A stretch of 64,000 nt of DNA from Norana najaformis. Taxonomy: Eukaryota > Annelida > Clitellata > Crassiclitellata > Hormogastridae. The notes under the pieces were generated by a model, which was given only the letters and a program-made list of their open reading frames with translations, did no database searches and was not told the DNA's origin. Within the stretch, counting starts at the first letter, position 1, and every line of letters begins with the position of its first letter. Shown here piece after piece: positions 21,501 to 62,614 of the stretch. The stretch covers positions 41,533,238-41,597,237 of the forward strand of contig OZ029915.1 in the NCBI GenBank assembly GCA_964023275.1. The letters are read 5' to 3'. A program made the position numbers and the translations under genes.

Positions 21501-24500
21501 ATAAAACACAGATTAGATTATTTAGAATAAAGACATAAATTAGAGACAAGTCTACTGTAAGCATCTTCCTAAACAACTCAGATCAATTCATTCTGATTTA
21601 CCTATGGAAAGGCACACCTCACTTACAGTGCTTACATACTAGCTTTTAACGAACTTTAAAAAACTGCCAAGTACAGAAGAAGAAGAATAAAACAGAAAAA
21701 TGAGTATAAAATTAGTAAATAACAGTACAAAAATAGTTTTAAAACAGAGGGAAAATAAAAACCTGTTGATACAGTTGTTCCTCCTTCGAGTCCTTGTATC
21801 CAAGATTTGGACAGAAGTTGAAATCTCCACTGACTGGTGTTGAATTAAAGATGTCTGCTGGAGTTGCAACCCAGTTTAACGTTGTATCCAACATAAGTTT
21901 TACAACCGGATCATTCTTTCCACAGAACGCCTCATTTCTTTCTCCATTTATGTGAGTTGATTCACCTCCACACATAAGCTGTTCAGTGTTTGGCCCACCT
22001 CTGTTCTTTTCCACCTGTGCAGTTCTAGGCATTCCAGGCCTCTCCATTTCCAGACATTGTTGATTTGACGCAATAAGGTTAATTTCTGGGCCTTCCAGCA
22101 AGTCCATCTGCTGCTGAAGCAGTTTTATTTGTCGGTTTTTCTCCTCTTCCAGCATTATCAACTGGTCCTTCATTTGATGCTCTCTTTCTTGACTCCGGCT
22201 CAGTCGCCTCTTCAGGCTCTCAAACTCAGACATCCACTCCATCTCTTTATCTTTATATTTGTCATGTGCCATCAGGCCTTGGCCAGTTACTCCATCACCA
22301 CCACTAGCATTCAACTGAGGCACAGTTTGACTGACAGCCTCATTCTGGCAATGCTCCTGCTGTAAAGCAAGTATGGCACCAATGTATGCAGAAGATCATC
22401 TTAAATTTCATATTTTAACATTAAATTAAAATACAGATAAAAGTATTGCAATTTTCATTCAAAATTATGTTATTTCTTTTCTTATTTCTTTATTACACTT
22501 ATTGCTTGTGCAAGATCATTAAATCATAATCTGAGGTGTGAGACAGGTAAGTGTGAACAACTTGTTCTAGATCACTGAACTGAGTCCGCTCAGCAGGCTG
22601 AAACCAGCAATTGCTGGACCACAGACCCAGCATTTTACAGTACAGATCACTGTGTGGTTGTCCATAAGGGAAGTCTGCAAAAACATCTACTTTGGACCTT
22701 GCATTTGCAATTACCCTCCCCATCCTCTTTGCAGAAGTTCCCTTTCCAAGTGAATACTAAGGCTTACGTTAGGCCATCTTGCTGATGTTGCAGAGATAAC
22801 AAAGGGACTCTAATCAGATCAAAAGCAGTTCAAGGTGTTCAGGGTGCAAGTCACACTGATGTAGCTCTACATACCAAACTTTTATGTGGAGGTCCACACT
22901 GGGCATAACCCCCTCCCTTGTTTGTATTTTTCCACATCTGTCTGCATATGTGACCCCTCCCTCTTTGCAGATGTCCTTAGTGGATGGCCTCTGTGCCCCT
23001 CAAATCGACTGCTGTGCTGCTCAACTGACAGTTTCAAGGATTCCAAAACTTGTGAACTGAACTCTTTTAAAGCAATTTCATCTCCCACGGACCAACTAAT
23101 TATACCTCAATTGGGTTTATATTCTCTTCCAACTTTTTGTTACCCATCAGTTATAAACATGAGGCATAAGCTATTGGTTTATCATCAACTGACTGAGAAA
23201 TTTGTAAAAGGTTTTCAATCTGCTGTAGAAAATTTTAAAATTTCTTTAGTATATTTTATCAGACACTGATCGATTAATTAAGAAAACCAGGTTCCTATAC
23301 AACTTCCTATTTACTGTCATTCAGCACTATTAAAAAACAAGACATATGCTCTTATTTAGTCATCAACCACTGACTTTAAAATTCTTCATAATTATTAAAA
23401 ATCTTCATATATTATTTATCAATCTACAATAAGACAAACCTTGATATCAAACATTTTGTCTGCAATCAAATGAGTTGCCACAATTGCATTCAATTCAGCT
23501 CCAAGTGAAAGTTTGTATTCGTCAGTCAACTTGTGAAATGAGTTTTGCTGTTCTGAAAAGACCTTTGCAAGCATTTCCTCATCACACTGTGTGGCAACAT
23601 TTCTTTCCATGACATCATTTGATTCATAGTGCATCAGCCGATTTTTCATAACTGATAGTTCAGATTTCAGCATTTCATTTTCCTTCTGCCACTGAAGTTT
23701 GTTCTGAAATATTATAAATGTGAAAATAAAAAAATTCATACAAAGGAGTTTTTTGCATTTTTAGAACCTTGAAGGAATTAATCTCAAGCACAGACACAAA
23801 ATGAGCTGAATGTAAATGAAAATTTAAAAAATTAGTCAAATTATCTGATAATTAACAGCTAACCAATTCTGGTGAATCTAGTACATGTACAGCTATCATT
23901 AACTATGACTAAAACACTATGAATCGAATGATGGTTGGTCAGAAGTGAAATTGCAGTTTGTATTTGTCAAAATCCATTAGAAAGACGAGGTCAAAATCTG
24001 AGAGGTGATATATACAAAATGTACATTCAGAAAAGTTAAGAAAGTATTTGTTGAATTATTAAATGAAATGATATTTATGTTTAAAAACTAGCCTTTGAAA
24101 TTACAGAAACAATTATGTGCAAAGATCTCTTGACATACTTTGGTCTAAGGTTCTAGTGATTGCACACTTTTGCAAGTGTTGAAACATATGCAGTATTACA
24201 CAGAAACTGATGTTAAAAATATATGACTGATAATGTTGTACCTCATCTGTGCCATTTTCCAGTTCCAGAATCTGAAATTCCAGTTCTTCATTCTGATCAC
24301 AGACTTCCCTCACTTTCAACTTTAGCTTTCCTTCATCCTCTTCACATCTTTTTAGCTATCATGTAAACATGAAAAAAATTATTTAGGCCTATTAAGCCTT
24401 AAAGTACGGATAAACAGACATTTATGTAGTGCCATTGTAATGAAACTCCTCTGCAGCGCTTATGACCCAACAAATCCATTCTAGCAGTGAACACGACTAA

Positions 24501-27500
24501 ATGACTCATGTAGGAGATGATAAATAGATGTAATAAATAGTAAATAAATTTTCATGACTTTATGGATTATACAGTTTTGTTACACTGACTGCTATACTGT
24601 TTCAAACAGGTATAGAAATGACATCACATTTATATCCAACTTATGCAGGAAATATCCAGGAAATCTTATATACATCAGAAACAAAAGAAACCAACAAAGA
24701 TTTTGTAATAATGTAAAAATATCCCAAGAGTTAAGCCTAAATAATTGCTGAATGTGACATATTGCATATTTTTCTTCTTCATCCAGAGGATTGTTGAGCA
24801 TTGAAACTGGCTACCAGAAGAAGTAACATCTGCAACAAGCTTAAACAGTTTCAGAAAAAAGCTTTGACAGTTGGATGGAGAGATATAGGCACTAAAAAGA
24901 CTTATTTAGCCTATTAACTGAAACTGCAACTGTGGCATTGCTTTTAACATGTGATACATACCTTGTCTTCAAGAGTCTGTATTACAATCTTAAGTGATTC
25001 CTTCTGGATATGCCAATCCTAAATATAGAACACAGCTTGACTTGAATCCACAGGTGCTGTTCATCAAATGGAAAAATCAGAATCCAGTAGGACTTTGTTA
25101 ACGATGACTAAATCAAGCATACAACTTTGAAAAAGCTCTAAATATATGCCATAACTTTTCTTGCGTTAAAGATAAGAAGACATTTGTCTTTAAGTTCAAA
25201 GTAAACTGTTTTCAATTTGTGAAATCTGCAACTTTTAGAAACGATTTGAACACTAGCTGTTTGCCTTGTGGAAAGATAACTGCAAATGACTTAATAGTTA
25301 CCACAGGTTCTTTAGGATTTTCTTCTTGTGAAAACTTGTACTGATGGTATAACTTTTCCATTTCCGAATATGTAGCTCTCAGCTCTTCCACATTATCCTG
25401 GTTTTCTCCAACAGATATCTATACAGGAACAACATCAGAAAACAAAGACAGAGATAGCCATTACTGCTACTTTAAGAACAAATTCTTGAGATCATGCTAG
25501 CTCAGAGGACACCTCTGATTAGCTCTGTTGAGAAGGTGCTATACAAATTTACAGTTACAATCACCCAACACAGCCTGGTTTTTGGATTTCTCTGACCTAC
25601 TGGATTTCAACCAGGTTTCTCCAAATGATTACGATTTGTGATAATTATGGTATGTTGCTTTACATTACCCTGCCTTCCTAACCATGGGAATTTTCCACAA
25701 AAAGTCATAGCTCCTCGTAAGTGAAAATACCACTTTCATAAGTTTGGAAACCAGTTATATGTTTTGAAAAGTGATAGACAAATGGCAAATATTAAAAACT
25801 AACCCTGAAAAAATCAATTTATTACAGTCATAATTCATATCATCAGCCTGAACAGTGGAGTCTGCATGCCAGAGGTGGTTTTAGAAACACAGTCTGAAAA
25901 CTGCCTTTGTCTATGCAATTGATTAGCATCATTTCATTAATTAGTAATAACAAGAAGTTAAATCAAGTCAGCATATTATGCCCAACAGTGTTTTAAGTAG
26001 CTCAGACATGCATTACCACATAAAGAAACCGTGAAAATAAAAAAAAACACTCAATTATTGTTGAGGAAAACAATTTTTCACAGATGTTTTGCATATATGT
26101 TCCTGTAACTTGGTTAGTCACAGCCACGGTTTGTAAAGCGTGTTGAATTGCTACAACTATGAATAGCCTCTAGGTGTTGAATATTGAAAAATATATCAAC
26201 AAAAATAAAATGATAATTTACATCAGGAGCAGGAGCAGTAGTACAAGATGAATCAAGCACCTCCAGCTCATCTCCTCCTTCTCCTCCTCCATCCAATCCT
26301 CCTCCTCCATCGTCATAACAAGCACAGTTACTATCATCACCAGCACACTAAGAAACAAACCAACATTACTGTCAAGTCCAAGTATGTCATCGTTCAAGTC
26401 CAAGTATGTCATTGTTCAAGTCCAAGTATGTCATTGTTCAAGTCCAAGTATGTCACTGTTCAAGTTCAAGTACATCATTGTTCAAGTCCAAGTATGTCAC
26501 TGTTCAAGTTCAAGTACGTCATTGTTCAAGTCCAAGTACGTCATTGTTCAAGTCCAAGTACGTCATTGTTCAAGTCCAAGTATGTCATTGTTCAAGTCCA
26601 AGTATGTCATTGTTCAAGTCCAAGTATGTCACTGTTCAAGTCCAAGTACATCATTGTTCAAGTCCAAGTATGTCATTGTTCAAGTCCAAGTATGTCATTG
26701 TTCAAGTCCAAGTATGTCATTGTTCAAGTCCAAGTACGTCATTGTTCAAGTCCAAGTACGTCATTGTTCAAGTCCAAGTATGTCATTGTTCAAGTCCAAG
26801 TATGTAACTGTTCAAGTCCAAGTACATCATTGTTCAAGTCCAAGTATGTCATCGTTCAAGTCCAAGTACGTCATTGTTCAAGTCCAAGTACGTCATTGTT
26901 CAAGTCCAAGTATGTTACTGTTATGCAACTTGGGGTAATGCTATCAGATAAACAGATAAACAATTACAAAGCTCCTTTCAATGCTATTACTAAACCCCTA
27001 AAACATAAGAGTAAATAACTCCAGCTCTCCAAATCCATTTGCTGGAAGGTTCCTAAATGCACTTGCTATAATTTTAAACCTCTTACCTAATTAAGGTCTT
27101 CAAAATAAAATTTTTTCATTAAAAAATAAAACTTTTTCGTTTCATATTTGGCAGTATTGTGTCCTTAAAAATTCTGAATTCAACATATGAAATTACTGTA
27201 TGTTAAATTCAACATTTTTAAGGACACAGTGCTGCCAAATATGAAATGAAAAAGACTAAGCATACATTAAAGTATTCATCAGAAAGTTGAAACTTGGATC
27301 AAACCCAGCCAAATAAATAATCATAATAGAATTTTAAAGATTAATCATTTTTATTATATGCATATAAAGTTTTCTCATCATGGCAGCTGCAACTTACCGC
27401 TTCGTGGTCTTCAAATGGTAGCAAAAATCTAACAGTCTAAAAGACAAATATAATCTTATGGCAGAACTTCATATAGAAAGTAAGTAACACATTTGTGTAC

Positions 27501-30500
27501 AGACCATATGTCCATCAGCTGAATTAGGAATTGTAGGTTCATAGGCTGTTAAGCCATAGGGCCTGGGGTCACTTGACCCCTACTTCTGAGAATACTGGGT
27601 CTTGTGACAGCATTAGACCCCCATATTTTGCCCCATCACCATCTTAGTCAAGCCAGAACTTAAATATTGTGTTTAAGCTTAAATAATAAAAAAACTGAAC
27701 TCTGGCCAACCACAGTAATATAAAATCAGTCCTCATTACCCAGACTTACCATTATTCAGCCAGATCATCTGATTGTCTTCCTCTGGTTCAACCTGAGACT
27801 AGAACTGTTCTCGGTGAACTTTTTAGTTGCTGGGTCGAACTTGGAACTGTCTACCTGTATCTGTTCATTCAGCCCAGTCACTTGTGTCATTTTGTTCTCA
27901 ACTTAAGACTTACATTTTTCAAACTGCTTATCCACCATAGGCTGCTACTCTGTCTAAGCAGACTGACCTTCTGGATATTGACCTAATTGCCGCTTGGCTT
28001 TGTGTGCCATCAGTTGATGCCTTGTGCATTTGAACTGGTGTGATAGAATTGCAAAAGTAAAACTTTATTTAAGATTTCATATTTAATGAGCCATATTGAA
28101 GTTCTAAAATTCAGTTTGAGCTAGCATGGTACATGTTTAACATAAATAAAAATATTTATGTTATTTAAAATATAAAGATTTTCATGAAACCCTCCATAAC
28201 TAAACTACTAAATCAAACAACTTAGAACAACAAACCTTCTTAGGTTTTGATTTCTTCTTCTCCAGCTTTACTCCGGTCTCATGATCTTTCAACTAAAATA
28301 AAATACATTTTGTCAGACTTCATTCAGTTGCCAAAATGCATTAAAAACGAATGAGTAGTAATCATAATCCTGAGATTTCTACAGTGCTCAAAGAAAGCCA
28401 AGTCATGGAAACAAGCTTATTCACAGGCGCTCAGTCAAAACAAAATTGCAGGCAGGTAAGTAAGGTCAGTGTCGGTGCCAGGTCAAGATCCAAAAGTCAC
28501 ACAAGTAAACAGGCACAGGCATATGAATGAATGCTGTACAATGACTGTATAGTCTTAATTCTGCTAATTTTCAATGATTTTATCAGGTTAGACCAATCAT
28601 TATTGCTGTCCAACTGAACAGACACCATGCCATTTAGGTTTCCTAGACACAAATCTCTGAAATATTGTTACTAGGATTCAAATCCAGAGGCACAAAACAA
28701 GAAAACATAAAACACCATCAGTTTTAAGTCGTTCAGAAGACACTTCATTTGTGTTAGAACCACTGCGTTATACAGAGTACATTCAGTAGCCAATTCTTTG
28801 TAACATCCTCTTAAAAGCTTTGATGACATCCCCACACAGTAATAACATCTTACTGTTCTGTAAGTCTACAACCCGTGCACTGAAGAATTTCTGCCTTTTG
28901 GTTTCTTAAATAATTTATACCTTTTATATCTGTAGCCTCGAGCCGCCTTGTTTGGTGCTAATTCAAAGAACCTCTCCCACTGCAATGCCTCCTTTCCAGT
29001 GATAATCTTATAAGCTTAAATCAACTCTCAGGTTATTCTTTCTATGGTTATTAGCCCACAGCTTCTCAGCCTTCCTTAAATGCTATTCAAGTATCTAGGT
29101 AGTAAAATAAATATAAACTAAATTTACAGAATAAATCTATTCTGTAGGAACAAATATTCAAAAAAAACATAATTAGCAGATGTGTTTAAAGTTAACAATA
29201 AAATTGCTCAGTCTAAGTCTCGAACCTGTCTTTGTAAATATTCAAGATCAGCTGTAAGATTGCTAATTCCAGTTGAGGTCATGAGACCATTCAGTCGCCT
29301 GATCTCACCTTTCGCTGACTTCATTTCAATATTCTAAATTCAAAAGAATGTCTTTTCATGAAATATCAGAACTAGCCAATGGCCCACTTATTAATTTTCC
29401 AACTGTCATTTCCAGAACTCCAAAGTACTGCCACATGTTCCCTTTCTTTAAACATTAAAAAATCCTTCATGACTAAAGATCTGTCACAAATAAATTAAAT
29501 TTTTTTCGCTAAAAAGGTTCTATATTGGCAGGTAGACAAAGTGAAGAGTGATGTATTCACACAGCGGCAGAATGGTTATCTCCAGCCAATAAAGTAGTCA
29601 AGCCTGGCCTCAGAGGGTTAGGTGTGGGGAACTTCAGCAAGTATTTAATAAACAATTGTTTAGTGCTAGCAACTGATATGTGTACAAAATTATTGGTTTA
29701 AGGAGTACAAGAATTTTAAAATAAGCTCCTATATAATGGAAGATTAACTTGAACAATCTAGAATGTGAAAGAACAAATCTGTTCTACAAGAAAAACAAGA
29801 AATCTATAATTTTCATTTCGGCTGCAGTTACTGTCACAGTAGCAGAAGAATTGTAAATGTGTTACTACTGACCAGTGCATTGTTTTGTTCAACCACAGCA
29901 CTAACTCTTTGCTCCAGTACTTTGTTGATGGTCTTTAGCGCGTTGTTTTTTTCTGTAAATCCAATGCTCACTGAGGCCACGTGTTTCAGCTGCTTCTCAA
30001 TTTCGTACAGTTTCCTTTGCTGAAAAACAGAATGAAAAACAAAAAGGCTGTAAATAAGAATTAAATCTATTAGCTACAGTCAAATAAAAGTACAAAAATG
30101 TTTTTAACACATAAAATGTCTATCTGTATTACAACGCGTTCTTACAATTGTTGTCAAAAACATGCATGAAGCTGATGCTGAAAATTGTTTCATTAAGCTA
30201 AACATCCTAAAAAATTGACTCAATTAGTAGCCTTTACATTTGTGTGTTCATGCACTGCTATCAAGATGAACTGTTGCCCTCAGGCTTTGATGGCTACTGG
30301 TGCTTCATAAATACTTCTGATCCTCACTCCCATGGCCAATTTGCTTGCACCCAGCTATTTAATATTAAAACTGCAAGTCCATCAGAATGGAAAGTGCTAC
30401 CAGCATCCATTCTTCTATATATATATATATATTCTATTGTATTTGCAAATTTAAATATCCCCTCTTACAGAATAAACTACTCGGGGATGCTCCTGGCATA

Positions 30501-33300
30501 ACAGCCCCAAGGAAACAGGCGAGTCTAAAGGAAGAGTTGCAACAATCCCACTTCCCACAGTCACCTGAGCTCAAACAGTAAATGTAAGATTGTTCCAAAG
30601 TAATGGACCCATCACCAAGACAGCCTTAAGTTGTGTCATGGAAATCCTCACCTAGGGAACAAGCAGCTGAATAATGAAAGAATGGACACTGGTAGATTTA
30701 ACACATATCCCACATCTATACTGATTATTTAGAAATGAAACAGTATTGGAATCAACAAGTTTAAATATAGAGAAGTAAAATATAAAGTTCAGCAACAGAA
30801 TACAGATAATCACAAATGCAACAGTAAGGAATGCTTCCTGGCAGCAATGGGAACATGCTCTTGACTGTACACATATGCTGGATATAAACGTAAATGCGAC
30901 TGTAGACAAAATACTCTGCCCTGACTTTACATTCATCGAAAATAATAGACCAAAGGACATAAAAAAGCAATAAAAAGAAGGCAAAGAATGTCTTCTATCT
31001 CTTTTTTCCACCACTAATCTTCTGTCTGTTGCTCCCACTTACTTCTCTCCTGTCTGTCTGTCTGTCTGTGTCCTTCTGTCTGTCTGCCTCCCTCTTGTGA
31101 GTTATATTCAGCATATGCAGCTGTATTGCTTGCCAAAGTATGTCTGTCAGCCTGCACGTCTCTTGGTGGTTTATATTTGAACTACAGGTATTCAACAGCT
31201 ACAGACAAGGAAATACTTCATGATAAAAGCCTACATAATTATTAGGGTGTCAATTGATGCTTTCCATAGGCAGCAGTAAATTATACTCCACTCATCATAT
31301 CTGATGGATGAGAATAGTTCCTTTGTTATGACCGGCTTTCCTCAACATGCTACACGACCTCTGATCTCTGCAGCCAGAGCCATGGTTACCTACGGCAGCA
31401 AGGCGAAGTTTCCCTCTGCCTGGTGAGTAAACACCAAGGCAGATGGTTGCTGCAGTAGATGAGGCAAATATGCGAAGCCATTGTAAATAAAGAACTGTGT
31501 ATTCTCGCTGAGTCAGAGCACTTCAGAACATCACCAGAGCTGCCATGAATCAAAGATTACACAGAAGCAGTTTCCCAGAGGGCCGCACTGGGCCCATGGC
31601 AGGCCTTCATTGTACTCCACAGAAGTGGGTCAGATGTCAGGGTGTCTGTTAAGTTCTAGTACAAAAGGTTCAAATTCAACTTTGACATGCAAGCCAATGT
31701 AATCCCATCTTGGATTTTAACAAGGTATGCTTTTTAAAATGCATTAACCAACATAAATTCCAATAAGCACAGATTTCTTGTTAGTATTTTTGATCACTGC
31801 TGGATAATTTATAAAATGCCTTATAGTAAATTATGTAATACTCATGAGAAAAATAATTTTGAGTCTCAACATATACATTCCATTATTTCCATTATTTAAA
31901 CGAGCTCTCAAAAGCAACTCACAAGGCTAAAATTTGGTAGACTTCCTCCTTGGTTGATCACTTCTGCAGTGTCTCCAGCTGAGGAAAACCTCTTTTCCCA
32001 AGATTCAATTTCTTTTGACAGGCTAACAAGTTCAGCAAGGCCAATGGATCCATTATCTGGCAGACACTTAGCAATGGATCTGCTGCTGACGGAATGATTT
32101 CCTTTCAAGGCAGCCATCGCCTGGTCCTTTGCTTTCAGCTGTTCAAGCTAAGTATCAGTGACATACAGTAATAAGAAATTCAAAATCATCTATTTGTGAA
32201 AACTAATCTGTCCTAGACTCCATGTGTAAACAAAAATTAAAATACCCTCAATGCAATGAAAACACTTCATCAAAGTACCTTACAATTTACAATGAAAAAT
32301 ACATGGCAAATTTGAAGTCATGATTTAAGACTTTTTACCTGGCCTATCCCATACACAGATTATTATTATTATTTCTGCATTTATTAAACACAACTATCTA
32401 CCCAAAAGCACCAGTCGATGGTACTGAACAATTATAAGTAAAGTACTTGCTCAAAGTCCCTACAAAGTAACCGCCTAAGGGGAGTTTCAAACCTGCACTT
32501 TGGGTTACATGCTGAGTGCTCTATCCCACTGGAGCATGGGTGGGCTACTATGCCCCATAGTTGGCTATCATGGGCTATGATTCACTTCAAAGTGACCATC
32601 TGCCTTGTTGTTTAACAATAGTAGCACTTATAGAGAGAGTCTCCAGATCAGATTAGGCAAAATATTGCAAGTAATAAAACAGACAATAAATTCTTACAAG
32701 TTTTTTAATTTCTATATTTGCATCTCTGTTAACTTTTGCAATTTCATTTCGACTAGTTTCCTGAAGCAGTCGAAGCTCGTTAGTCCGTTGCTTTTCTGCT
32801 TCCATAGCAGACGACAGAGCATCTTCAGTCTGTTTCTTGGAAGCACTTAGTTCCTTTATTTCTTGGAGCAACTTGGATCGCTCCAGCTCGAAAGCTGCAC
32901 GTGCCGAAGTAGACAAGCCACGTTTGAATAGTTCCTCTTTCAGGTCATCCTGACATTTGACAAGGTCCTTTTTGATCTTGTTAGCTTCTTTGTCTTTCTG
33001 TTTCACGACCTTGACAATGTCAGATTTGTGTTTGCACTGCAGGATCTCAGTTTCCCGTTCTTTCTCCTGGTGCAGTTTTGCCACCATCTCCTTCAAGGAC
33101 ATGGCAGCCTTGTTCCGTTCCTGTTCCCGGGCCAGCTGAACTTCGTAGGTCTTCTCACGCCGTAACCGTCGGACGCATTTCTTCTCCGCATCAAGTTCAG
33201 ATCGGAGGTGGACGATAGCTGCTTTCAGGCTGTCCACAGTCTCTTCAGAGGAATGATTACTTCCACTGGCAATTGTTCGTCTTCTGTTATTGTTTGCCAT
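18536..33300 (-). CDS. JAKMIP-like coiled-coil protein, 16 exons, about 1327 aa
   Basis: Vertebrate JAKMIPs bind microtubules, JAK/TYK2 kinases and the GABA-B receptor. Exons in order: 32698-33300, 31923-32147, 29873-30019, 29226-29333, 28236-28292, 27398-27436, 26222-26347, 25302-25418, 24962-25018, 24242-24355, 23440-23703, 21763-22359, 20568-21425, 20169-20250, 19483-19880, 18536-18727. All introns are GT-AG, and all are phase 0 except the one between exons 14 and 15 (phase 1). Residues 1-201 align with the JAKMIP N-terminal coiled coil (AFELERSKLLQEIKELSAS). DQNEELEFQILELE (513-526) matches the conserved DQNELLEFRVLELE block. Exon 6 resembles the FFGFDEE segment. Exon 13 is a long coiled coil (819-1104). 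Exon 7 is Gly/Asp-rich, exon 15 is acidic and Ser-rich, and the last 63 aa are unrecognised. The protein is about 500 aa longer than vertebrate JAKMIPs. The ATG at 33300 starts MANNNRRR. A strong donor (AAG|GTAAGA at 18568) inside exon 16 means the C terminus may be alternatively spliced. Confidence 0.82.
22659..22990 (-). mobile_element. MITE (GGTCGTCC family) in JAKMIP-like intron 11
   Basis: The left end GGTTGTCCATAAGGGAAGTC and the right end, read inward as GGCCATCCACTAAGGACATC, form terminal inverted repeats. The interior aligns, in reverse orientation, with the copy at 44165-44489 over its full length, including TGCAAAAACATCTACTTTGG and AATACTAAGGC. No coding capacity is present, so it is a nonautonomous DNA transposon. 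The superfamily and target-site duplication could not be fixed. Confidence 0.65.
24560..24895 (+). mobile_element. decayed LINE reverse transcriptase C-terminal fragment
   Basis: With stops ignored, the plus strand at 24792-24890 reads NWLPEEVTSATSLNSFRKKL, the W-N-x-LP...SxNxFKxxLD signature at the end of CR1-like ORF2. Several stops show it is dead. It lies antisense within the JAKMIP-like intron between exons 9 and 10. Confidence 0.5.
26372..26921. repeat. 22-bp minisatellite, 25 copies, in JAKMIP-like intron 6
   Basis: 550 bp equal exactly 25 units of TCAAGTCCAAGTATGTCATT plus GT. Variants occur at a few positions (TATG/TACG/TACA, CATT/CACT/CATC, TCC/TTC). Because 22 mod 3 is 1, all three plus frames stay open with a 66-bp (22-residue) protein period. 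The long frames of up to 256 aa are therefore artefacts. The array ends 24 bp from the 3' splice site of exon 7 on the minus strand. Confidence 0.95.
27132..27254. repeat. about 120-bp imperfect palindrome (foldback element)
   Basis: The left arm from 27132 (CTTTTTCGTTTCATATTTGG) pairs with the right arm ending at 27254 over about 56 bp with roughly six mismatches, leaving a loop of about 11 nt. Transcribed within JAKMIP-like intron 6 it would form a long hairpin. It is probably a foldback MITE, or less likely a small-RNA precursor. Confidence 0.8.
27740..28035 (+). mobile_element. LINE family B 3' end
   Basis: Shares the block CTTCTGGATATTGACCT, then TTGATG, then CTTGTGCAT with the minus-strand copy at 37765-38215. 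It also shares an upstream frame-broken segment equivalent to AGPKFWNSFPVS. This is a 5'-truncated, heavily decayed CR1/L2-type copy, antisense to the host JAKMIP-like gene. Confidence 0.6.
28358..28505 (-). mobile_element. LINE family A 3' end, minus
   Basis: Minus-strand copy recognised by TTTCTACAGTGCTCAAAGAA, GCTTATTCACAGGCGCTCAG and GGTCAAGATCCAAAAGTCA on the plus strand. It is diverged and lies in the JAKMIP-like intron 4. Confidence 0.65.
28760..29100 (-). mobile_element. LINE reverse transcriptase C-terminal fragment, third type
   Basis: The minus strand reads KEALQWERFFELAPNKAARG, followed after one frameshift by FSARVVD. This is the (R)GDLIxxYKIxxG...FF.....RG...K...FS.RVV.LWN pattern of LINE C termini. 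Frameshifts and stops are present. It is in sense with the JAKMIP-like gene, in intron 4. Confidence 0.6.
30240..30430 (+). mobile_element. possible LINE C-terminal remnant
   Basis: The frame FMHCYQDELLPSGFDGYW resembles the FM(Y/H)K-Y...LP..F segment near the end of some LINE ORF2 proteins. It is short and diverged. A (TA) run at 30417-30432 follows. Treat as tentative. Confidence 0.3.
31030..31100. repeat. (TGTC)n microsatellite
   Basis: TGTCTGTCTG tract on the plus strand. The rest of the intron, 31100-31920, shows nothing recognisable. Confidence 0.8.
32345..32565 (-). mobile_element. tRNA-derived SINE, minus strand
   Basis: Read on the minus strand from 32545: CCAGTGGGATAGAGCACTCA (A-box-like) and then GCAGGTTTGAAACTCC (B-box-like). 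A body follows, with an ATT-repeat end at 32362-32372. tRNA structure is decayed. It lies in sense with the JAKMIP-like gene, in intron 1. Confidence 0.5.
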
Positions 33301-35749
33301 TGCTTCTATTGTCCTTCGGCTAATTAGATTAACTTGGAATTGGAAGAGCAATGGCAAACTCTGGAGTTTTACTTCGGCACGTGGTTCTCTTGTACTTCTT
33401 AAGTGGCTGCAAAGATCAGAAACCAGAATAACAATTACTGCCCAAACTCACTCAGATGTCATTTGTTGTTAAGAAGATTATTTGCTTAGAAAACAGAAGT
33501 TAAGTGACCTATTTTGGTTAGAAGCTTACATCAATATCACGATGAAATCCATGCTGGCTGCATATGGGATGAAGATATAGAGGATCTTTGACTAGTAATC
33601 AGTTTTTTGACATTGTAACTTAAATTTCCTTCATAGTTGAACAATCGTTTATGAAAACTTTGCATTTCTTCAACACCCTAAAAGCCAAGCTAAGAGTCAC
33701 AACCCAGAAGTTAGACAGGCAGACATACAGGCAGCCAAGATCAGGATATTAGGACAGTGGAGCTTGCTTGCCAGATTTGCTAAGACTGTTAAAGCTTGGG
33801 CATAGATGAAGTAGTGTTTACATGTTCATTGACACATCAAAATCTTTTCTGTCTGCATAAGTGAAAACCAGGATTGGCTAAATCTCCTAAACAATCCTTA
33901 GACTAAACTTCCTGTAAGTATCGTGGAAACAACCCATAAATTAATCAATATTTCTTTGCCAGTTAAATAAGTACTATTATTTGCACTCATAATTATTCTG
34001 CACTGCTTGGGTTGTTTGTTTTTAGTCTGAATGGTAATCAGTTAGCCCACCCCCAACTGCACTAGTTTCCCTGGCTTCACAGCTGCATTTAGAAGCCATA
34101 CTGCTTTTACTGAAGCCATGATCTGGCGTTTTGAGAGCCAGATACTGAGCTGTATCACGCAGTGGTAGCCGGCACAGGTTCAGTCAACCTCTCACTCAGA
34201 CTGTGCATTATATTAAGCATTAAAAGCCTTGCAGTGGAGGCTGAAGTTGGCAAAATGCCCAACACCAAAGCCAGTAATTTTCCTTCGATTGTACAACCAA
34301 CACCAGCGTCTTATTTTAAAACATGCAATTTCTGCCTAGAGACTGAAAAGAATCTAACCTCTACAGCTCTGTTATAATAACGTGCTAATTGTCAACTTCT
34401 ATCTGAAAATCTGGTGAAAAGTAGAAATTTAATCTGGATCTGATTAAAGCCCAATTTTGTTGATTAACAAATGGAATGTTAAAATGCTATTGCTTTTACA
34501 TTCACGATTCACGGCCTTAGTCCTTCTTAGTTGGACATAAGTTGTACATTAAAAATATCCAACTTACGCCTGACAAATGTCTGCAACTTATAAATTAAAG
34601 GTCACTGTTTGTTGCTGGCTATTGCATTTCCATGCCCAGTGGCCTTAGTCCTATTAATAATCATTTGTAAGTCCACCTGGCATCAAGTCTTCAGTGCCTC
34701 CTTTTGCTGGAACACATTATCACTAGTCTGGGCATCATTCAGTCTTTAACCAATTCATTTCACACTAATATATAACCAGAAAAACTGCTTGTGTTCTGAC
34801 TTCAGATGAACCAATACAGGTCTTCATAACACCAATCTCCCTTGTTATGTTTGATTCCTGACTGCTCTCCATATCTTCCCAAACAATAACTTTATTAAAT
34901 AACTACTTCAGCTCTTCTGCTGCACATAATCATAAATTCCTTTTCACAATTCATTTATTCGTATATTTAGCTTAGCTCTCTCCTCTCTTTATGTCGTAAT
35001 TAATAAACTGTTATAGTTTCTATAATAGTCTTGGCCGTTTTGAAATTAAAGTTGCTTAACTATGAGTAACTAACTATGAGTAATTTTAACTGACACTTTG
35101 ATCTAGAAAGTGGGGTATCAATTTCTTTTCCTCCTTTCCTCTTTCTTATAATCATTATTGTTTTACCAAAAGTATGAAAAATCCCTGGAGAGCATAAAGT
35201 TTATGCTAAATTTAATGCCTATTATTTATTAACGGTATGAAAATGTACGGGATCTGGTACCACAGTACAAAACGTGGGGTACAAGTACCCCAGTTCCCCG
35301 AAAATTACACCAATTACCAGAATATCTGGACATTAGCGCAACAATTAAAGTTTTTCATCATAACATTTTTAAAGTTGAAATACATGAAAGTGAGTGAAAA
35401 AATACTTCAGTAAGTTGCTCATATGTGCAGCTGAACTTAAGATTTTTACTGCCGTGAGTTACCAATAATGACTAACAAGTGAAGTTTCAATAAATGTTTG
35501 GCCACATTAGCTTCAGATACAATCTATTATTTAAATAGTTGAATAAGCCTAATGTAAGGCATCCCTGTATTTCCAAGTGGTCCATCTGCAATGTCTTAAT
35601 AGTTATCAGACACCTAGACAGCTTAGAAGCAGAAGCTGAAAGGGGAAAAGAGATAGACACAGGATTTGCATCATAATAAAGCTAGGAGCTCTATCACTTA
35701 AATCCACCACTGCATAAAGTCTAAAAGGACTTGTGCTACATTTGTGTAA
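33301..35749. other. intergenic, upstream of JAKMIP-like gene; nothing recognised
   Basis: AT-rich. It probably contains the 5' UTR or promoter of the JAKMIP-like gene, but I cannot place a start site. A minus-strand donor-like GACAAG|GTATTT at 37140-37147 could end a distant noncoding first exon, which is unproven. No coding exon seen. Confidence 0.4.
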
Positions 35750-36400
35750 GTTAATGGAGTATTCTAAGTACTTTATTTTGAGCTTTTGAAGCATCATATC
35801 ATGCTTTCCGCTGAAATTCTGGTTTTGATTTTGTTATGGCAGCAAATTACATTCAAAACTGTTTATTATTTGCATAACAAGTATTTGTAAGTTCTTTGAT
35901 TGAAAAAGAATAACAACAATAATAGAGATATATGCCTTATGATTTACAAAGCAGGATGTAGAGATACTCGATGCTTTTAACTGCGGAATGCAATTACTTT
36001 GGAAATTCAACTTGCCAGACTGAAGATCAACTTGTTGCTTGCAGTCATAATAAAAATGTACAATGTGTTGATTGGACTAAGTTTATACGATAATTGACCT
36101 GAACAATTATTGTTCAATAGAAGTAATTTGCTCTTGCAAAATTTTTGTATATCCATTTTAATTAAATCATTTTGAGTTGAGGAAAAGTTGAATTTGCTCC
36201 AAGACTGCCATATTTGGTGCTAATACATCAAACCACCACCTATCTACCATAGGATTTAAGGAATGCTTTTTTCAAAACATCTTGCTTTGCATTTTTACCC
36301 TACAGGTCAATGAGGTAAACATTGATTCATCTCAGGTGAAAAGAGAATGCTATCTTGAATATGATGTGCAGCTGGCATTTCTAAAGAGAATAAAAAAGTC
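35750..36400 (+). pseudogene. decayed duplicate of F-box-ARP intron 3 end and exon 4
   Basis: This 650-bp block aligns in direct orientation with about 42030-42657, the end of intron 3 plus most of exon 4 of the F-box/actin-related gene, with scattered substitutions. The acceptor TACCCTACAG is retained at 36296-36305. The exon copy (VNEVNIDSSQVKRECYL) runs to about 36395 and then diverges before the donor into a TAG. No copies of the other exons were seen nearby, so this is a segmental duplication fragment and not a second gene. Confidence 0.85.
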
Positions 36401-38215: not shown

Positions 38216-38517
38216 AAATGGAAGCCCTTGAGTTTATCGTAAATAACTGCCAAAGAAACGCAATCCCCCTACCGCAGCTTACCACCGACGGTCAGGTTTT
38301 ATGTAAAACTTATCCAATTAAACGAGTTTCCATACCCGGTCAAATTATATGATATGACGTAGATGAGCATCCAACACTAGAAAGTCTATGGCGGAAACCA
38401 TCAGCTCCAGCGATCTCTATTTATAGTTATTGTATCTATGCTGTGAACCATAGTGTTATTATGTGTATGCTTGGTACGGCTGAAACCATCGGGGGCTGAA
38501 AGGAATCCATATATGAA

Positions 38518-41500
38518 ATGGATGATTATCAACTACCGGATGAAATCTTAGCGAAAATCTTCACTTATTGTACTGTGGGGACGCTGTACAATGTAATGCT
38601 TGCCTGTCGACGGTTTCGGGATTGTGTCAACATTAATTCAGTGTGGTATGCAATTTCTGCACCAGCCTTTCGCTCAAAACTGAAAACATTCCTCTTTCAC
38701 ACCCTATCTTCTTCTTATCTCTCTTTCTGCTCCGATCCCAAACACCACCCACCCTAGCTGCCAGGCTATCTCTCAGCCTGAGTTTTGGATTTTGACCTGG
38801 AACCGAACCTTTTTGCCTGTCGATTCTGTTTTGACTAAACTGATCCCAGTGACGTGGTTTTTGCTGGGCGCTGTAGAAATCTTGGGATTACGATTACAGT
38901 TTCAATGGCGATGCTTTGTTTCAAAGTTAAAACCGATAGTATAAGTAATTTATCTGGCGCTATGGCATTTCGATATTGATACTGTTGCAGTACTTTGTGC
39001 GGAGAGCTTTGTAAAAGTGATTCACGAAAGTATGTCTCATGGAGACAAATTATTGAAATCAACTGATTGTTGCTCCAACTTATCCATTCAGGATATCAGT
39101 AAATGCAACAATTTAAATAAGAAGTTTAGCTATATGTGATTGTAATATTCAGCGTATTACAAGATAATCATCCATTTAACAATAATATGCAATTCAAGGA
39201 ATTATCGAGAAACAGCCGCCTGCAATTGCCCCACTTATAAACAACGACGCCACCCAGACTGCAAAAGAAATTAGAGCACTGCAAGTCCATTTATCATTTA
39301 TTGTTGGACTCTTGTGCACACCGACATTTGACATTGTAAGCATCCTTGAAGTAGCTTGCTACTTACGATGCTGTAAAAATTGTTGTGATTACAATATAGG
39401 AATATTTGAGAAAAAGCTCTGAAATTACTCTTTGCTGTGTCCTTATTTTTCTCTCTGTCATGAGTAGCTGTATCCACATGGTGCCTTCCTGTCTTTGGTT
39501 GTCTTTTGTGCAATATTCTTTATGCTATGCATTGTAAATAAGGATTCTATTGCTGTTTTGTAGGAAGTCAAAGCTACAAGAACTGTTGGGTCTTTCATCA
39601 CTGAGGAAACATTTGGAGGTGACGGAATTTACAAGCCACCCTGATGAAGCTGAAAACTGTAAAGAGATTTACCAGCGATTCTGCTTGGTGTTTAATCAGA
39701 AGTTCAAGTTTGACAATGATCTGTTCAAGTGTCCAAAGTGCAGTTCAGTTTTCTGCGCCATTTGCTGCATACATGATCGGGATGAGATGATTACGTTTGA
39801 TTTTGGCAGCAAAACCACATGGTTCAAGTATGCAGGGGAAATGACAGGCCAGCTGAGTATGCATCCTACAATCGGACCAATGAAGACACATGCTGAAGAT
39901 TTCTGGACTGCTTTCAGTACATCGTTCACTGATTCCACTGCATTGGCATATGAATGTTGTCCTGTCTGTGCTCGTATAATCCTTCGCCGATCGGCTAACA
40001 ATGTGATGCTGGACACTGGACTGGACAGAAAGATCGGACAAGTGACTGTTCATCCCAGCCGGTTTACAAAGGCTCTGTCAAAGCTCTCTTCTTTCAAAGG
40101 CTTGCAGTGTTTCAGTTTTTCTGAGGGTGTAGATGATGACCTAGTTCTTCTGCCAGACCCAAGTAACCGAAGTGCTACAGTGGCAGAGCCAGTACGGGAG
40201 GTTTCATCAATGGTAGCAGTGGATAATGAAAATAAAGCATTTGAAATGTACAAGTTTCTTTTACAGCATCTTCTCAGTCGGAGTGCGTTCTATCATCTGC
40301 ACAACATACCTTTCGTCATCTGTGAACCTGTTGGCTGTGACAGTCGGCTGAAACTGGAACTGGCCAATGTTATTTTGTGTCATTTCAAAGCACCTGGGTA
40401 ATTTTTCAAACCAGACCTAGTACAGTCTGTTACGTATACCATTTAGTTGGACATTTAGCACTGTGTTTAGTTCTAAACAAGAATTTGGGATTAACCAGAC
40501 TAGCATTGTCTTGTTTTCACTTGCAGAAGTTGGCTGCATTTATTTACCCATTGTCTACAATTCTCTTCAGTTTATGGCTTGTCAACAAGCCTTTCCTGTC
40601 CAAAATGTGAAGAGATTTCTTTTCTGTTGCATAGTTTTACCATATTTATTGTTGTGCCTTGACTTTTAACTGATGCTGATTAATTTCTTTGATTTCTAAA
40701 GTTTTATAAATTTGGTTTTTCTTTGACATTGACCAATTTGCATAATGGATTTTATGTTAATCCAGGAGTATAAAGTTGTGTGTTTGCACTGATGTGACCG
40801 TGCCTTAGAAAACCCTCACAAATTTGGAAAAAATCAAAACTGGGTTTGATAGTGCATTGGATTAGGCTGGAGTTTCTGAATATTTTGGTGAAAACCGCAT
40901 GTTACTATCACCGTTAGTAAAAAAATTACAATTTTTTAAAGATGTTGGTCTCGGCTACTTTTGAGAAATCATGAGTTAAAGTTTACCATGCCCGACTTAT
41001 ACCGCTGCGTCTAGAGGCCATGAGTGTTAATTGGTATAGTAAATTTGAGCATATTGATATGCCTCTGAGGCTGCCATCAATGAAATCTTGATAAAAAAAA
41101 CTGGTTAAGATGAGTATTTACATGACTTGTTGATTTGGATGATAACCTATGCACACAACTTCAAATTAGGGCACCAAGTAGACATGTTAATTTAAGTCTT
41201 TGTTGGGACATCATATTAAAATTGAAAATAAAAATACATTGACAGCAAAACCAAATAAGGACTTACAATTTGGAAAGCTCACACAGCAAGTAAGGCAACT
41301 ATGCAAAGAACTCATTTTTACCTATTTCATGCCTACTTGCCTTCTGAGCGCGTTTCTCATAAATAAACTTTTCCACTTTGTGAGGGTGTTCTAAGGCACA
41401 GTCATGTATGGCCAGTTTCGGTCTCATCATGTACTTGTGTTAGCTTCTTAAACTTGCTTCAGATTTTATCTTTATAAAGTTACTGGTTTTTTCCTTTATT

Positions 41501-43602
41501 GTTTTTCTGGTTTTGCCTATTTGGTGACATTATGTGCTTTTATTTGTTTATCCTGATTTGTTTCTGTTGTCTTTAGGGTCTGCTTCATTCCTAAGGCTGT
41601 GGGCATTGCGTTGTACTCGGGATTGGAGACTTGTCTCGTCGTTGATAGTGGAGCTAACAACACTGTTGTGACACCAGTTGTTGATTCACTTGCTCTTTCT
41701 GATTGCGTACAGCACTTGGAAATTGGTGGGTCACATCTAACCAGGCAACTTTTGGCATGTCTGTCAACCAAAGGCATTGAAGTTGAGGCAAGTTTCAGCA
41801 GACTGTTGTTATCTTGTTGGTTTTAATGCTTGAATGGCTGATAATAGAATTCTCCAGGACTTAACTCAGTACATCAAAGTAGAGATGTGAAGAAATTGAG
41901 TACATTTAGACAGCTGTATCATTCAGAGCTCAGTGCTTGCAAACATTGGATTATCCTCTGATGAATTAGTTATTGGGGTATTCTAAGTGCTTTATTTTGA
42001 GCTTTTGAAGCATCATGTTATCCACTGATGAATTAGTTATTGGGGTATTCTTAGTGCTTTATTTTGAGCTTTTGAAGCATCGTGTCATGCTTTCTGCTGT
42101 AATTCTTGTTTTGATTCTGTTATAGCAGCAAATTTCATTTAGAACTGTTTATTATCTGCATATTAAGTATTTGTAAGTTCTTGGATAGAAAAAGATAATA
42201 ATACTAGAGATAAATGCCTTATGACTTACAAAGCAGGATGTACACATACTCGATGCTTTTAACTGTGGACTGCAGTTACTTTGGAAATTCAACTTGCCAG
42301 ATTGAAGATCAACTTATTGCTTGCAGTCAATAAAAATGTACAGAATGGACTAAGTTTACATGATAATTGACCTGAACATTTATTGCTCAAATGAGGTAAT
42401 TTGCTATTGCAAAGTTTTTGTATATCCATTTTAATTAAACCATTTCAAATTGAGGAAACGATGAATTTGTTCCGAGACTGCTATGCTTGGTGTTTCCATG
42501 TCAAATCACCTTCTATCTACCATGTATGATTTAAGGAATGCTCTTTTCAAAACATCTTGTATTGCATTTTTACCCAACAGGTCAATGAGGTAAACATTGA
42601 TTCATCTCAGGTGAAAAGAGAATGCTACCTTGCGTATGATGTGCAGCTGGAGTCAAGAAAGAGAATTGTTCCAAGAGATATTCATATCAAGGGCACAAAG
42701 TAAGTCATCAACTGAAATTGCTGCCTTCATTATTCACAAATTTCAACTTCTGTGAACATTATTTGGAGATTGATTTGTTGTCCCATCAGCTTTTTGGTTC
42801 GCAGTTTCAATATGTTGCTCTTTGTTAATAGTGTAATGTAATAATCACTGTCGATTATGTTATAATTAACTCTAGATAAACTTTTAATATTAATTTAATT
42901 TAGAAATTGCGCAGTCAACCTAGTCTCCTGCTGGAAAGTGACTGTCCCATGCGTAAAAAAGGCCCCAGAAGTCTGTATTAAGTCTCAGGTAGTGTCCCCA
43001 ATCTAGAGGTGTGATGGACCATATACCACTGATTATTTCTCTGTTTCTTAATAATATGCCAAGTTAGGTTTTCTTGTTTTTGTGACTGTAGGGATGACAA
43101 GCCAAAGTATTTTGATGTCAAACTGAGTCATGAATTATACCTGCTGGCTGAGGATATGTACCTTCATCTTCAGCTACCTCAGCTGATTCTGCAGTCATTG
43201 GAAACTCTTGACTCCTCAATGAAGAGGCAGTTGATTTCCAACATCATTCTTACAGGTGGCAACTGTCGACTTTCCGGCTTAGCTCATCGACTGAGCCACG
43301 ACCTTCAGCGTTTGTTACCTGCGGATCTTAGCTGCAGCGTGCATGTGGTCGATCCACGCTTAATGACTGGCAGATCGGATGCTGTCATTGGTGCATCCTA
43401 CATAAAGAAGTGGCACCATGCTCACTGGATTTCACGGAAAGACTTTATAGTACTCGGAGAGAAAGCTGTGAACAGCGAATGCAGTTCTGTTGAGCTTTCT
43501 GCATCAATGAACCATATCATTGACAGAACAAATTCTGTTAGAAGTAATTTATCAGCTGTGGATGGTTACTCTTGTGGGTTGTCTGACTCTCCTCATATCT
43601 GA
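38518..43602 (+). CDS. F-box/actin-related fusion protein, 600 aa, 5 exons
   Basis: Exons: 38518-38645, 39564-40397, 41577-41787, 42581-42699, 43092-43602, with one unbroken frame. Residues 5-45 are an F-box (LPDEILAKIFTYC ... CRRFRDCV ... SVW), the SKP1-binding module of SCF ubiquitin ligases. From about 110 onward the protein follows the actin fold. The phosphate-1 loop is DFGSKTTWFKYAGE (122-135), phosphate-2 is VVDSGANNTVV (343-353), and the adenosine-site motif is LTGGNCRLSGLAHRL (484-498). ATP binding is therefore plausible. An unusual Cys cluster, CPKCSSVFCAIC (C99, C102, C107, C110), precedes the phosphate-1 loop, and ECCPVC follows later, suggesting a zinc-binding insert. Introns 1, 2 and 4 are GT-AG. 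Intron 3 uses a GC donor (GAG|GCAAGT). F-box plus ARP is known from plant ARP8. I do not recognise a described animal orthologue, so function is inferred from domains only. Confidence 0.88.
38649..38905 (+). mobile_element. LINE family A 3' end at the 5' edge of intron 1
   Basis: From 38649 the sequence is family A (TGCAATTTCTGCACCAGCC, FRSKLKTFLF, TTTTGACCTGGAACCGAACC, then GGGATTACGATTACAG). The element begins three bases inside the intron, immediately after the donor G|GTA of F-box-ARP exon 1. Confidence 0.75.
41952..42085. repeat. 67-bp tandem duplication in intron 3
   Basis: 41952-42018 and 42019-42085 are near-identical (start TATCC(T/A)CTGATGAATTAG, four differences noticed). The distant duplicate at 35750 has only one unit, so this tandem probably arose after, or was absent from, the copied segment. 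Confidence 0.9.
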
Positions 43603-45254: not shown

Positions 45255-45525
45255 AGATCAATCCCATACTTTACCCCAGCGAGTGGCATTCCTCTTTCAC
45301 AGATCCTATCCTGACTCCCCTTCTTCCTCTTATCCCTCTTTCCGCTCCAATCCCAAACACCACACACCCACTGTAGCTACCACGCTGTCTCTATTTCTGA
45401 CTCATCTTGACCTGGAATCGAACACTTACCTATCGATTTTGTCTTGACTGAGCGCCTATGAATAAGCTGGTCCCGTGACGTGGCTTTCGTTGGGCGCTGT
45501 AGAAATCTCGGGATTACGATTACGA
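45255..45525 (+). mobile_element. LINE family A 3' end, plus
   Basis: Near-consensus copy: CTTGACCTGGAATCGAACAC, CGCCTATGAATAAGCTGGTC, GGCTTTCGTTGGGCGCTGTA and the tail GGGATTACGATTACGACGA. Confidence 0.75.
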
Positions 45526-51654: not shown

Positions 51655-51760
51655 ATTTGGTTTCTTAGCGTGCATCTTTGAAGCACAGACCAGGCAACAA
51701 TGATCCAACACTAATGTAATGTAATATTTCTTCTATTTCTATGTAAGGGCAGTTCAAGGG
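51655..51760 (-). repeat. inverted-repeat arm, right
   Basis: Reverse complement of 49478-49568 (AAATTTGGTTTCTTAGCGTG ... ACCAGGCAACAATGATCCAA). This copy has an extra AATAGAAG-like stretch before the GGGCAGTTC end. Confidence 0.85.
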
Positions 51761-51865
51761 CAGTTCAAGGCCATTATTTGTTTCTACAGCGCATATGCTG
51801 ACACTTGCGCCGCATATGGCTGCCGTCAGCTAATAACTGTACATGTACAACGCCCTTTTTCAGCC

Positions 51866-51926
51866 TTATTATTATTATTCTTCTTCTTTTTCTTTTTTTC
51901 TTCTGCTTCTTCTTCTTCTTCTTTAC

Positions 51927-51987
<61 letters not shown>

Positions 51988-52150
51988 TTCTTCTTCTTCT
52001 TCTTCTTCTTCTTCTTCTTCTTCATCTTCTTTTTCTTCTTTTTCTTCTCCTTCTTCTTTTCCTTTTTCTTCTTTTTCTTCTTCTTCTTCTTCTTTTTCTT
52101 CTTCTTCTTTTTCTTCTTCTTCTTCCTCCTCTTCCTCCTATTCTTCTTCC

Positions 52151-52189
<39 letters not shown>

Positions 52190-52190
52190 A
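51866..52190. repeat. compound (ATT)/(CTT)/(CAT) microsatellite
   Basis: About 325 bp of triplet repeats: ATT, CTT with TTTTTC interruptions, CAT (51927-51986), more CTT, then ATT (52152-52187). All open frames are homopolymer artefacts. Confidence 0.95.
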
Positions 52191-52530
52191 AGATTTATGA
52201 TCTGTTGTATGGCTACACTGTGCCACCGCAGCCACTCAGTCGTGCATGCCATGTCCTCAGCTGTGAACGATCCGAGTGAGATCTGTGTAGACATAGGGAT
52301 CTACGCAGAACAACGGCGGAAAGCAACGCGTTGCTGGCTATCGAGGGAAAAGCTGGCCCAGCGATGTAATCGTTGTTTGATAAGAGATACGATCCGCCAC
52401 CAAATAAGCACCCTTACCTAACAAAGGCATCGAGTTTTATTTGCCCGATGAGTCATAAGCGCCGACCCGACACGACACAGACAGACGTACATACACTGTA
52501 AGATAGACAGGCTGTCTGACAGACAGACAA

Positions 52531-52816
52531 GCAGGCAGGCAGGCAGGCAGACTGACTGACTGACTGACTGACTGACTGACTGACTGACTGACTGACTGAC
52601 TGACTGACTGACTGACTGACTGACTGACTGACTGACTGACTGACTGACTGACTGACTGACTGACTGACTGACTGACTGACTGACTGACTGACTGACTGAC
52701 TGACTGACTGACTGACTGACTGACTGACTGACTGACTGACTGACTGACTGACTGACTGACTGACTGACTGACTGACTGACTGACTGACTGACTGACTGAC
52801 TGACTGACTGACTGAC
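52531..52816. repeat. (CAGG)n then (ACTG)n tetranucleotide satellite
   Basis: Five GCAG units, then about 66 perfect ACTG units from 52550 to 52816. The Ser-Gln-Ser-Val poly-frames are artefacts. Flanks are CAGACAGA-rich to about 53010. Confidence 0.97.
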
Positions 52817-53189
52817 GGTATTGCGTACAGACATACAGACAGACACTGCAAGACTGAGAAACAGACAGACAGACCCCCTAAGACAACAGACAGAAAGTTA
52901 AACAGACATACAGTACAACACAGACAGAGATACACTGTATAAGAGCCAGACACACTGCCAGAAAGACATTGACACAGACAGACATACATGCAGACAGACA
53001 AGCAGACAGCCCCACTTCAAGTGTCTGCATGGATTCATCGCCGGGCGTGTTATGAAGAAATTTCTGTAATTTGGCACACTGGATTGATGCTGCATTTGAA
53101 GGGGGTTTTATCCGGAGGCACCTGATGACCGATCAGGACACTGTCGATCGTCCGACAGGGAGTTTCTATAGACAACTGGCGCTCGTCTA

Positions 53190-55331: not shown

Positions 55332-55795
55332 TTTGCCTGGTTAGTTACATTACAGCGTACGCTACAGAGCCTCTGGACGTGAGGATACTGGTTCGCATAT
55401 CGATGGTAGCTGTATTTCAGAGAGTTGAATCTCTGGCTAGCACAGTCCGTACGCGGGGACCTTAAATGGCGTGGCTCCCATTCAAACGGACAGCGGTGGT
55501 GAAGGATCTCATCGGATTAATCCATTGAAAAATGAGAATCGTAATCGCAATTCCGAAATTTCTACAGCGCCCAACGAAAGCCACGTCGCGGGGACCAGCT
55601 TATTCACAGGCGGTCAGTCTAAGCAAAATCGATAGGCAAAAGGGTTCGGTTCCAGGTCAAGATCCAAAAGTCAGACGGAGAGAGCGTGGCAGCTACGGAG
55701 GATGGTGTTTGGGGTTGGAGAGGAGAGAAATACGAGGAAGAAGGGTCGAGGCCATGTGTTCCTATAGAAAAACATGTACATTTACATTGACCGCT
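55332..55795 (+). mobile_element. SINE family E interrupted by LINE family A
   Basis: The SINE head and body run 55332-55535 (GCCTGGTTAGTTACATTACA, CTGGTTCGCATATCG, AGAGTTGAATCTCTGGCTAG). The SINE 3' module resumes at 55742 (AGGGTCGAGGCCATGTG, tail TACATTTACATTG). Between them, 55536-55741 is a minus-strand LINE A 3' end, starting with the inverted tail AATCGTAATCGCAATTCC. The LINE therefore inserted after the SINE. Confidence 0.8.
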
Positions 55796-62567: not shown

Positions 62568-62575
62568 ATCATCAC

Positions 62576-62614
<39 letters not shown>

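What the first reader, a model, noticed from the sequence alone, without database searches (positions are those of the whole stretch)
38518..43602. An animal F-box/actin-related (ARP) fusion protein
The first exon is a clean F-box. Four further exons, in the same frame, encode an actin fold with recognisable phosphate-1 (DFGS), phosphate-2 (DSG) and adenosine-site (TGGN..LSGLAHRL) motifs. F-box plus ARP is established for plant ARP8. I know of no characterised animal protein with this layout. Inference: an ATP-responsive, actin-fold substrate receptor of an SCF ubiquitin ligase, either anciently shared with plants or convergent.
Basis: partly seen in the sequence, partly recalled or inferred. 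Interest (0 to 1): 0.88.

Follow-up and report, generated by a model that had tools for sequence, protein, structure and literature searches.

The report
Animal F-box/actin-fold fusion gene family
This animal gene joins a protein-destruction adaptor (an F-box) to an altered actin-shaped domain, a combination reported so far for plants, and related genes in a centipede and an acorn worm suggest that it belongs to an old animal gene family.

Summary
Five exons at 38518-43602 (+) splice in phase into a 600-aa protein with an N-terminal F-box and a C-terminal actin fold. The fusion is not local: a centipede (Strigamia) and an acorn worm (Ptychodera) protein have F-box plus actin in the same order; an annelid (Capitella) protein has the actin part only. 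Two papers state that F-box+actin is confined to plants. An actin-fold substrate receptor of an SCF ubiquitin ligase is the best explanation, by inference. 'ATP-responsive' is not supported: actin's K18, Q137, D157 and H161 are replaced in 4 of 4 animal sequences, and plant SUSA2/ARP8 nucleotide-site mutants still work. Whether animal and plant fusions share one origin is open: the tree has little power, while profile ranking and published distribution lean to independent fusion. A new feature is a conserved cysteine cluster, perhaps zinc-binding, between F-box and actin fold. No transcript or binding data could be examined, and the species was not identified.

The parts
38497..38499 (+). in-frame stop upstream of the start codon
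38518..38645 (+). exon 1: start codon and F-box (protein residues 1-43, W43 codon split by the intron, phase 2)
   Evidence: Pfam F-box-like 1.2e-11 on the unspliced ORF that contains it
38646..39563 (+). intron 1 (GT-AG), contains a dispersed repeat at about 38649-38897
39564..40397 (+). exon 2: post-F-box linker, cysteine cluster C99/C102/C107/C111, phosphate-1 loop DFGSKTTW, long insert with C175/C178, first part of the actin fold
40398..41576 (+). intron 2 (GT-AG)
41577..41787 (+). exon 3: actin fold incl. phosphate-2 motif VVDSGANNTVV
41788..42580 (+). intron 3, GC donor (gcaagt) and AG acceptor
42581..42699 (+). exon 4: actin fold (VNEVNIDSSQVKRECYLAYD, K403 aligned with actin K213)
42700..43091 (+). 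intron 4 (GT-AG)
43092..43602 (+). exon 5: end of actin fold (LTGGNCRLSGLAHRL adenosine motif), a tail of about 43 residues mostly unaligned in Capitella, Strigamia and Ptychodera but partly similar in the close relative fragment P0011, and the stop codon
35749..36391 (+). diverged partial copy (86% identical over 645 columns) of intron 3/exon 4 (42035-42666)

Best explanation
The locus is one five-exon animal gene of a bilaterian family that I call F-ARP. Shown by sequence: a canonical F-box, a linker with a conserved cysteine cluster, and an actin fold in which a long variable loop stands in the subdomain-2 region. Inferred: the F-box docks on SKP1 so that the protein is the substrate receptor of an SCF (CUL1) ubiquitin ligase; the actin fold binds the substrate or a partner and is not a filament subunit. 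If it binds a nucleotide, it does so as a structural cofactor without hydrolysis, as recalled for ARP4. The cysteines, perhaps with zinc, tie the linker (C99-C111) to the loop (C175/C178) and hold F-box and actin fold in a fixed orientation. The fusion more likely than not arose independently of plant ARP8/SUSA2.
Against: No transcript, SKP1 binding, ubiquitin ligase or zinc data. Capitella's database protein has no F-box (472 aa, starts at the cysteine cluster); a short gene model is possible but unchecked. The Cys cluster is largely lost in Ptychodera, so it is not essential to every member. Sequence matches of the F-box region to solved F-boxes are weak (best E 0.0059). Some F-box proteins work outside SCF (recalled). 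The tree does not reject a joint plant-animal clade, and in single-sequence comparisons Capitella and Strigamia score a plant ARP8 above conventional actin. One intron needs a GC donor. F-box placement relative to the actin fold is uncertain in the model (linker pLDDT blocks 52-77, pTM 0.56).
Confidence: 0.65

Rival explanations
1. One ancient F-box-ARP fusion predates the plant-animal split; plant ARP8/SUSA2 and animal F-ARP are orthologues that diverged fast and were lost in many lineages.
For: Same domain order. The joint clade is not rejected: AU p = 0.227, 0.485 with all 19 rows and 0.46 with two long branches removed; its likelihood is 5-7 units below the best tree. Single-sequence scores of Capitella and Strigamia put the Arabidopsis-type ARP8 (25.8, 28.8 bits) above actin (21.4, 10.5). 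F-box regions of Ptychodera and plant ARP8 both have FBXW7 as best solved match.
Against: Profile ranking: animal profile scores ARP3 75, ARP2 73, ARP4 70 and plant ARP8 54/47/46 bits; plant profile scores actin 149 and animals 31-40. The free tree puts them apart. The Cys cluster and long loop are absent from 3 of 3 plant rows, and plants keep K18 and Q137, which the animals lost. [quoted passage not shown] sampling not read). All could reflect fast evolution and sampling.
Confidence: 0.3
2. The actin fold is an ATP-gated switch that controls substrate binding.
For: The positions of actin D11, G13, D154, G156, G301 and G302 are conserved in 4 of 4 animals.
Against: K18 to W/Y, Q137 to K, D157 to A, H161 to V in 4 of 4 animals. 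SUSA2 G258A, K313A and G399A/G400A fully complement.
Confidence: 0.12
3. The F-box serves a stable SKP1 complex without ubiquitin ligase activity, for instance in assembly of an actin/ARP or chromatin complex.
For: ARPs usually act as architectural subunits and some F-box proteins act outside SCF (both recalled). No result here separates SKP1 binding from ligase activity.
Against: Most F-box proteins studied are SCF receptors (recalled); plant SUSA2 associates with ASK1 and is treated as part of an SCF ligase. Nothing specific excludes the rival.
Confidence: 0.13
4. The F-box exon is a separate gene or an alternative first exon, and the main product is an ARP without F-box.
For: Capitella's annotated protein begins after the F-box. 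No RNA evidence was available.
Against: Database proteins in two other phyla carry F-box and ARP in one protein. In-phase splice sites, and the same exon-2 junction in six fragment rows.
Confidence: 0.05

Closest known systems
Plant ARP8 / SUSA2 (Arabidopsis At5g56180)
   Same: N-terminal F-box, C-terminal actin fold, similar size (471 vs 600 aa); probable SCF receptor
   Different: No Cys cluster and no long loop in 3 of 3 rows, keeps K18 and Q137 but has N at D154; its actin-domain profile is closest to conventional actin, not to F-ARP
F-box substrate receptors of SCF (e.g. FBXO31, FBXO44, FBXW7, SKP2)
   Same: F-box with LP..(I/L), C..(F/W) and W positions
   Different: Their substrate modules are of other folds such as WD40 or LRR (recalled), not an actin fold
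Nuclear ARP4 (ACTL6A/BAF53)
   Same: D157 to A (also in an Entamoeba actin-like row) and T303 to N (also in ARP6 rows) as in F-ARP; altered Q137 and H161; groups with the animals at UFBoot 73
   Different: No F-box, no Cys cluster; only 70 bits against the F-ARP profile, below ARP3 and ARP2; the grouping is weak

Membership tests
Actin superfamily / ARP | significant match to the Pfam Actin profile | tested here: met
   PF00022 3.4e-36; Strigamia 2.1e-27, Ptychodera 3.9e-35, Capitella 1.5e-24
Actin superfamily / ARP | actin fold in a model | tested here: met
Conventional (hydrolysing, polymerising) actin | catalytic/phosphate residues K18, Q137, D157, H161 | tested here: not met
   W/Y, K, A, V in 4 of 4 animal sequences; roles of these residues recalled
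F-box protein | F-box above Pfam's curated cut-off | tested here: met
   PF12937 41.3 bits against 24.3; unspliced exon-1 ORF 44.6 bits
SCF substrate receptor | binds SKP1 and CUL1 and recruits a substrate | not testable with these tools
   needs an experiment
Plant ARP8/SUSA2 family | F-box followed by actin domain | tested here: met
Plant ARP8/SUSA2 family | actin domain groups with plant ARP8 in a tree | tested here: inconclusive
   separate in the free tree, joint clade not rejected (AU 0.227; 0.485; 0.46)
Plant ARP8/SUSA2 family | actin-domain profile is reciprocally closest to plant ARP8 | tested here: not met
   profile ranks; profiles built from 4 animal and 10 plant sequences, so unequal rates could matter
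Zinc-binding Cys cluster | conserved C-x2-C-x4-C-x3-C plus C-x2-C | tested here: met
   C99/C102/C107 16 of 17, C111 14 of 17, C175/C178 17 of 17 exon-2 rows; largely lost in Ptychodera
Zinc-binding Cys cluster | binds zinc | not testable with these tools
   no Pfam zinc family above its cut-off in the proteins scanned

The most novel reading that the evidence does not exclude
Animals invented, independently of plants, an SCF receptor that reads its substrate with an inactivated actin fold, stapled to the F-box by a zinc cluster. The family was present in the last common bilaterian ancestor and has gone unnamed, because the standard model animals have lost it or diverged beyond recognition.
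Probability: 0.45. Interest if true: 0.78.

Novelty: new variant of a known kind. Interest (0 to 1): 0.62.

Why it matters
Two papers state that F-box+actin is confined to plants. An animal family with the same layout changes that and shows the actin fold recruited, perhaps twice, as a likely ubiquitin-ligase module. It gives a second natural system for the open question of what the actin fold of ARP8/SUSA2 recognises, whose substrate is stated as unknown, and whether nucleotide matters there. It also raises a testable link between the actin/ARP system and protein degradation in animals.

Tried and rejected
Own-genome search for paralogues: the genome search did not complete, so copy number in this genome and the species are unknown; 'animal' rests on the nearest named relatives. 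A local second gene: rejected, since 35749-36391 matches only intron 3/exon 4. Origin of the F-box: F-box regions against solved structures gave FBXO31 and FBXO44 (E 0.0059, 0.0094) for the window, FBXW7 for Ptychodera (0.0038) and plant ARP8 (1.7e-4), and nothing below E 0.6 for Strigamia; the plant query also drew many antibody chains at E up to 1. Too generic to tell the origin. Named zinc-finger family: none above cut-off. NCBIfam: only matches far below cut-off to prokaryotic actin-like models. A first tree run with a mixture model timed out and was replaced by LG+G4. In one search the quick unconstrained search came out worse than some constrained trees, so that run is rough; none of its eight topologies is rejected at AU 0.05 with all rows, and only animals+ARP2 (0.034) with two long branches dropped. 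Absence in insects and vertebrates is not claimed: none is named, but only 7995 candidates were scored in each, and one search missed P0002 although it was in the query alignment. No F-box match was seen among the listed fold-search rows, which are filled by actins.

Full report
The observation. The coordinates given are right. I rebuilt the gene from splice sites: exons 38518-38645, 39564-40397, 41577-41787, 42581-42699 and 43092-43602 on the + strand, 1803 nt, no internal stop, 600 residues. Introns have phases 2, 2, 0 and 2. Three are GT-AG; intron 3 needs a GC donor (gcaagt). The start codon has an in-frame stop 21 nt upstream (38497), and a polyadenylation-type hexamer begins 336 nt after the stop codon. 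The unspliced ORF holding exon 1 scores as an F-box (1.2e-11), and those holding exons 3 and 5 score as actin (3.2e-15 and 1.6e-14). The spliced protein scores Actin 3.4e-36 and F-box-like 1.3e-10. This is no chance match.

Is the fusion real? No RNA could be examined. Two protein searches gave 22 proteins that I count as family members (P0001-P0004 and P0006-P0023); the other five hits (P0005, P0024-P0027) look like ordinary actin-like proteins. Three members carry a species name. Strigamia maritima (575 aa) and Ptychodera flava (642 aa) have F-box and actin in one protein in the same order; Capitella teleta (472 aa) has only the actin part in its database protein. These are an arthropod, a hemichordate and an annelid, so the family goes back to the bilaterian ancestor unless it was transferred; the F-box itself is shown in the first two and in the window. 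The other 19 are unnamed short ORFs, 17 of them corresponding to exon 2 and two (P0011, P0018) to exon 5. Sixteen of the 17 were aligned with the window (P0023 was left out); six of the 16 read through the exon-2 acceptor at the same place (RK.KL). The nearest is 85% identical over 46% of the window protein (P0006), so a close relative exists.

Nucleotide site. Aligned to actin, D11, G13, D154, G156, G301 and G302 are kept in 4 of 4 animals, while K18 is W or Y, Q137 is K, D157 is A and H161 is V in 4 of 4. The roles of these residues are recalled from actin biochemistry. Hydrolysis is unlikely; static binding, as recalled for ARP4, is possible. In plant SUSA2 (PMC7562919, section 8 read), G258A, K313A and G399A/G400A mutants fully complement. 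'ATP-responsive' therefore has no support.

Relation to plant ARP8. With 19 sequences and 347 columns the four animals form one clade (UFBoot 100) apart from three plant ARP8s (100); ARP4 joins the animals at 73. Forcing animals+plants costs 5.6 log units and is not rejected (AU 0.227). Among eight topologies with all rows none is rejected at AU 0.05; with two long branches dropped only animals+ARP2 is (0.034), and that run's quick unconstrained search was not fully converged. The tree thus has little power. Profile ranking: the animal profile's best outside hits are ARP3, ARP2 and ARP4 (75, 73, 70 bits), with plant ARP8 at 54, 47 and 46; the plant profile's best outside hit is actin (149), with animals at 31-40. 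Against this, single-sequence comparisons of Capitella and Strigamia score one plant ARP8 above actin, though below other ARPs. Unequal rates could produce all of this. [quoted passage not shown] its sampling was not read). I favour independent fusion at about 7 to 3.

Mechanism. Shown: F-box, actin fold, Cys cluster, altered nucleotide site, relatives across Bilateria. Inferred: SKP1 docking through the F-box, substrate or partner binding by the actin fold, no filament formation because of the loop, and a zinc staple between linker and loop. The plant analogue associates with ASK1, which supports the analogy but is no test of this protein.

Literature. Searches (20 of 190 listed) showed no paper on an animal F-box-ARP, judged from titles and abstract starts. 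I read passages of PMC7562919, PMC2441452, PMC12062965 and PMC11096116, and section 8 of the first. PMC7562919 says the combination is found only in the plant lineage. PMC2441452 (an actinome survey) has no occurrence of 'F-box'. The library holds open-licence papers only, so subscription literature was not searched.

Verdict. A real, conserved animal family, not described in the papers searched, of a known architectural kind: new variant of a known kind. The function is an inference, and the origin relative to plants stays open.

Noticed in passing
35749-36391: Partial, 86%-identical copy of intron 3/exon 4 of the gene (42035-42666), about 6.3 kb upstream; its exon-4 copy departs from the parent after VKRECYLEYDVQL.
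   Followed up: partly
26240-27032: Array of 22-bp tandem repeats, copies mostly 92-97% alike in the middle.
   Followed up: no
20418-33447, - strand: Coiled-coil-looking ORFs (20418-21425, 21739-22395, 32653-33447), perhaps exons of one gene read away from the F-box/actin gene; Pfam gave only one weak match, CENP-F_leu_zip on the first. A resemblance to JAKMIP proteins is recalled, not tested.
   Followed up: partly
38649-38897, 7606-7807, 45318-45523, 55541-55746: Dispersed repeat about 75-77% alike, one copy in intron 1 of the gene.
   Followed up: no
10963-11460 and 61800-62672: ORFs that look like the end of a LINE-type reverse transcriptase from memory; Pfam gave no match at E 0.01.
   Followed up: partly
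51725-52421 and 52418-53016: Long simple-sequence stretches that leave open frames in several registers.
   Followed up: no
41951-42088: Tandem duplication of about 67 bp inside intron 3, 94-96% identical.
   Followed up: no
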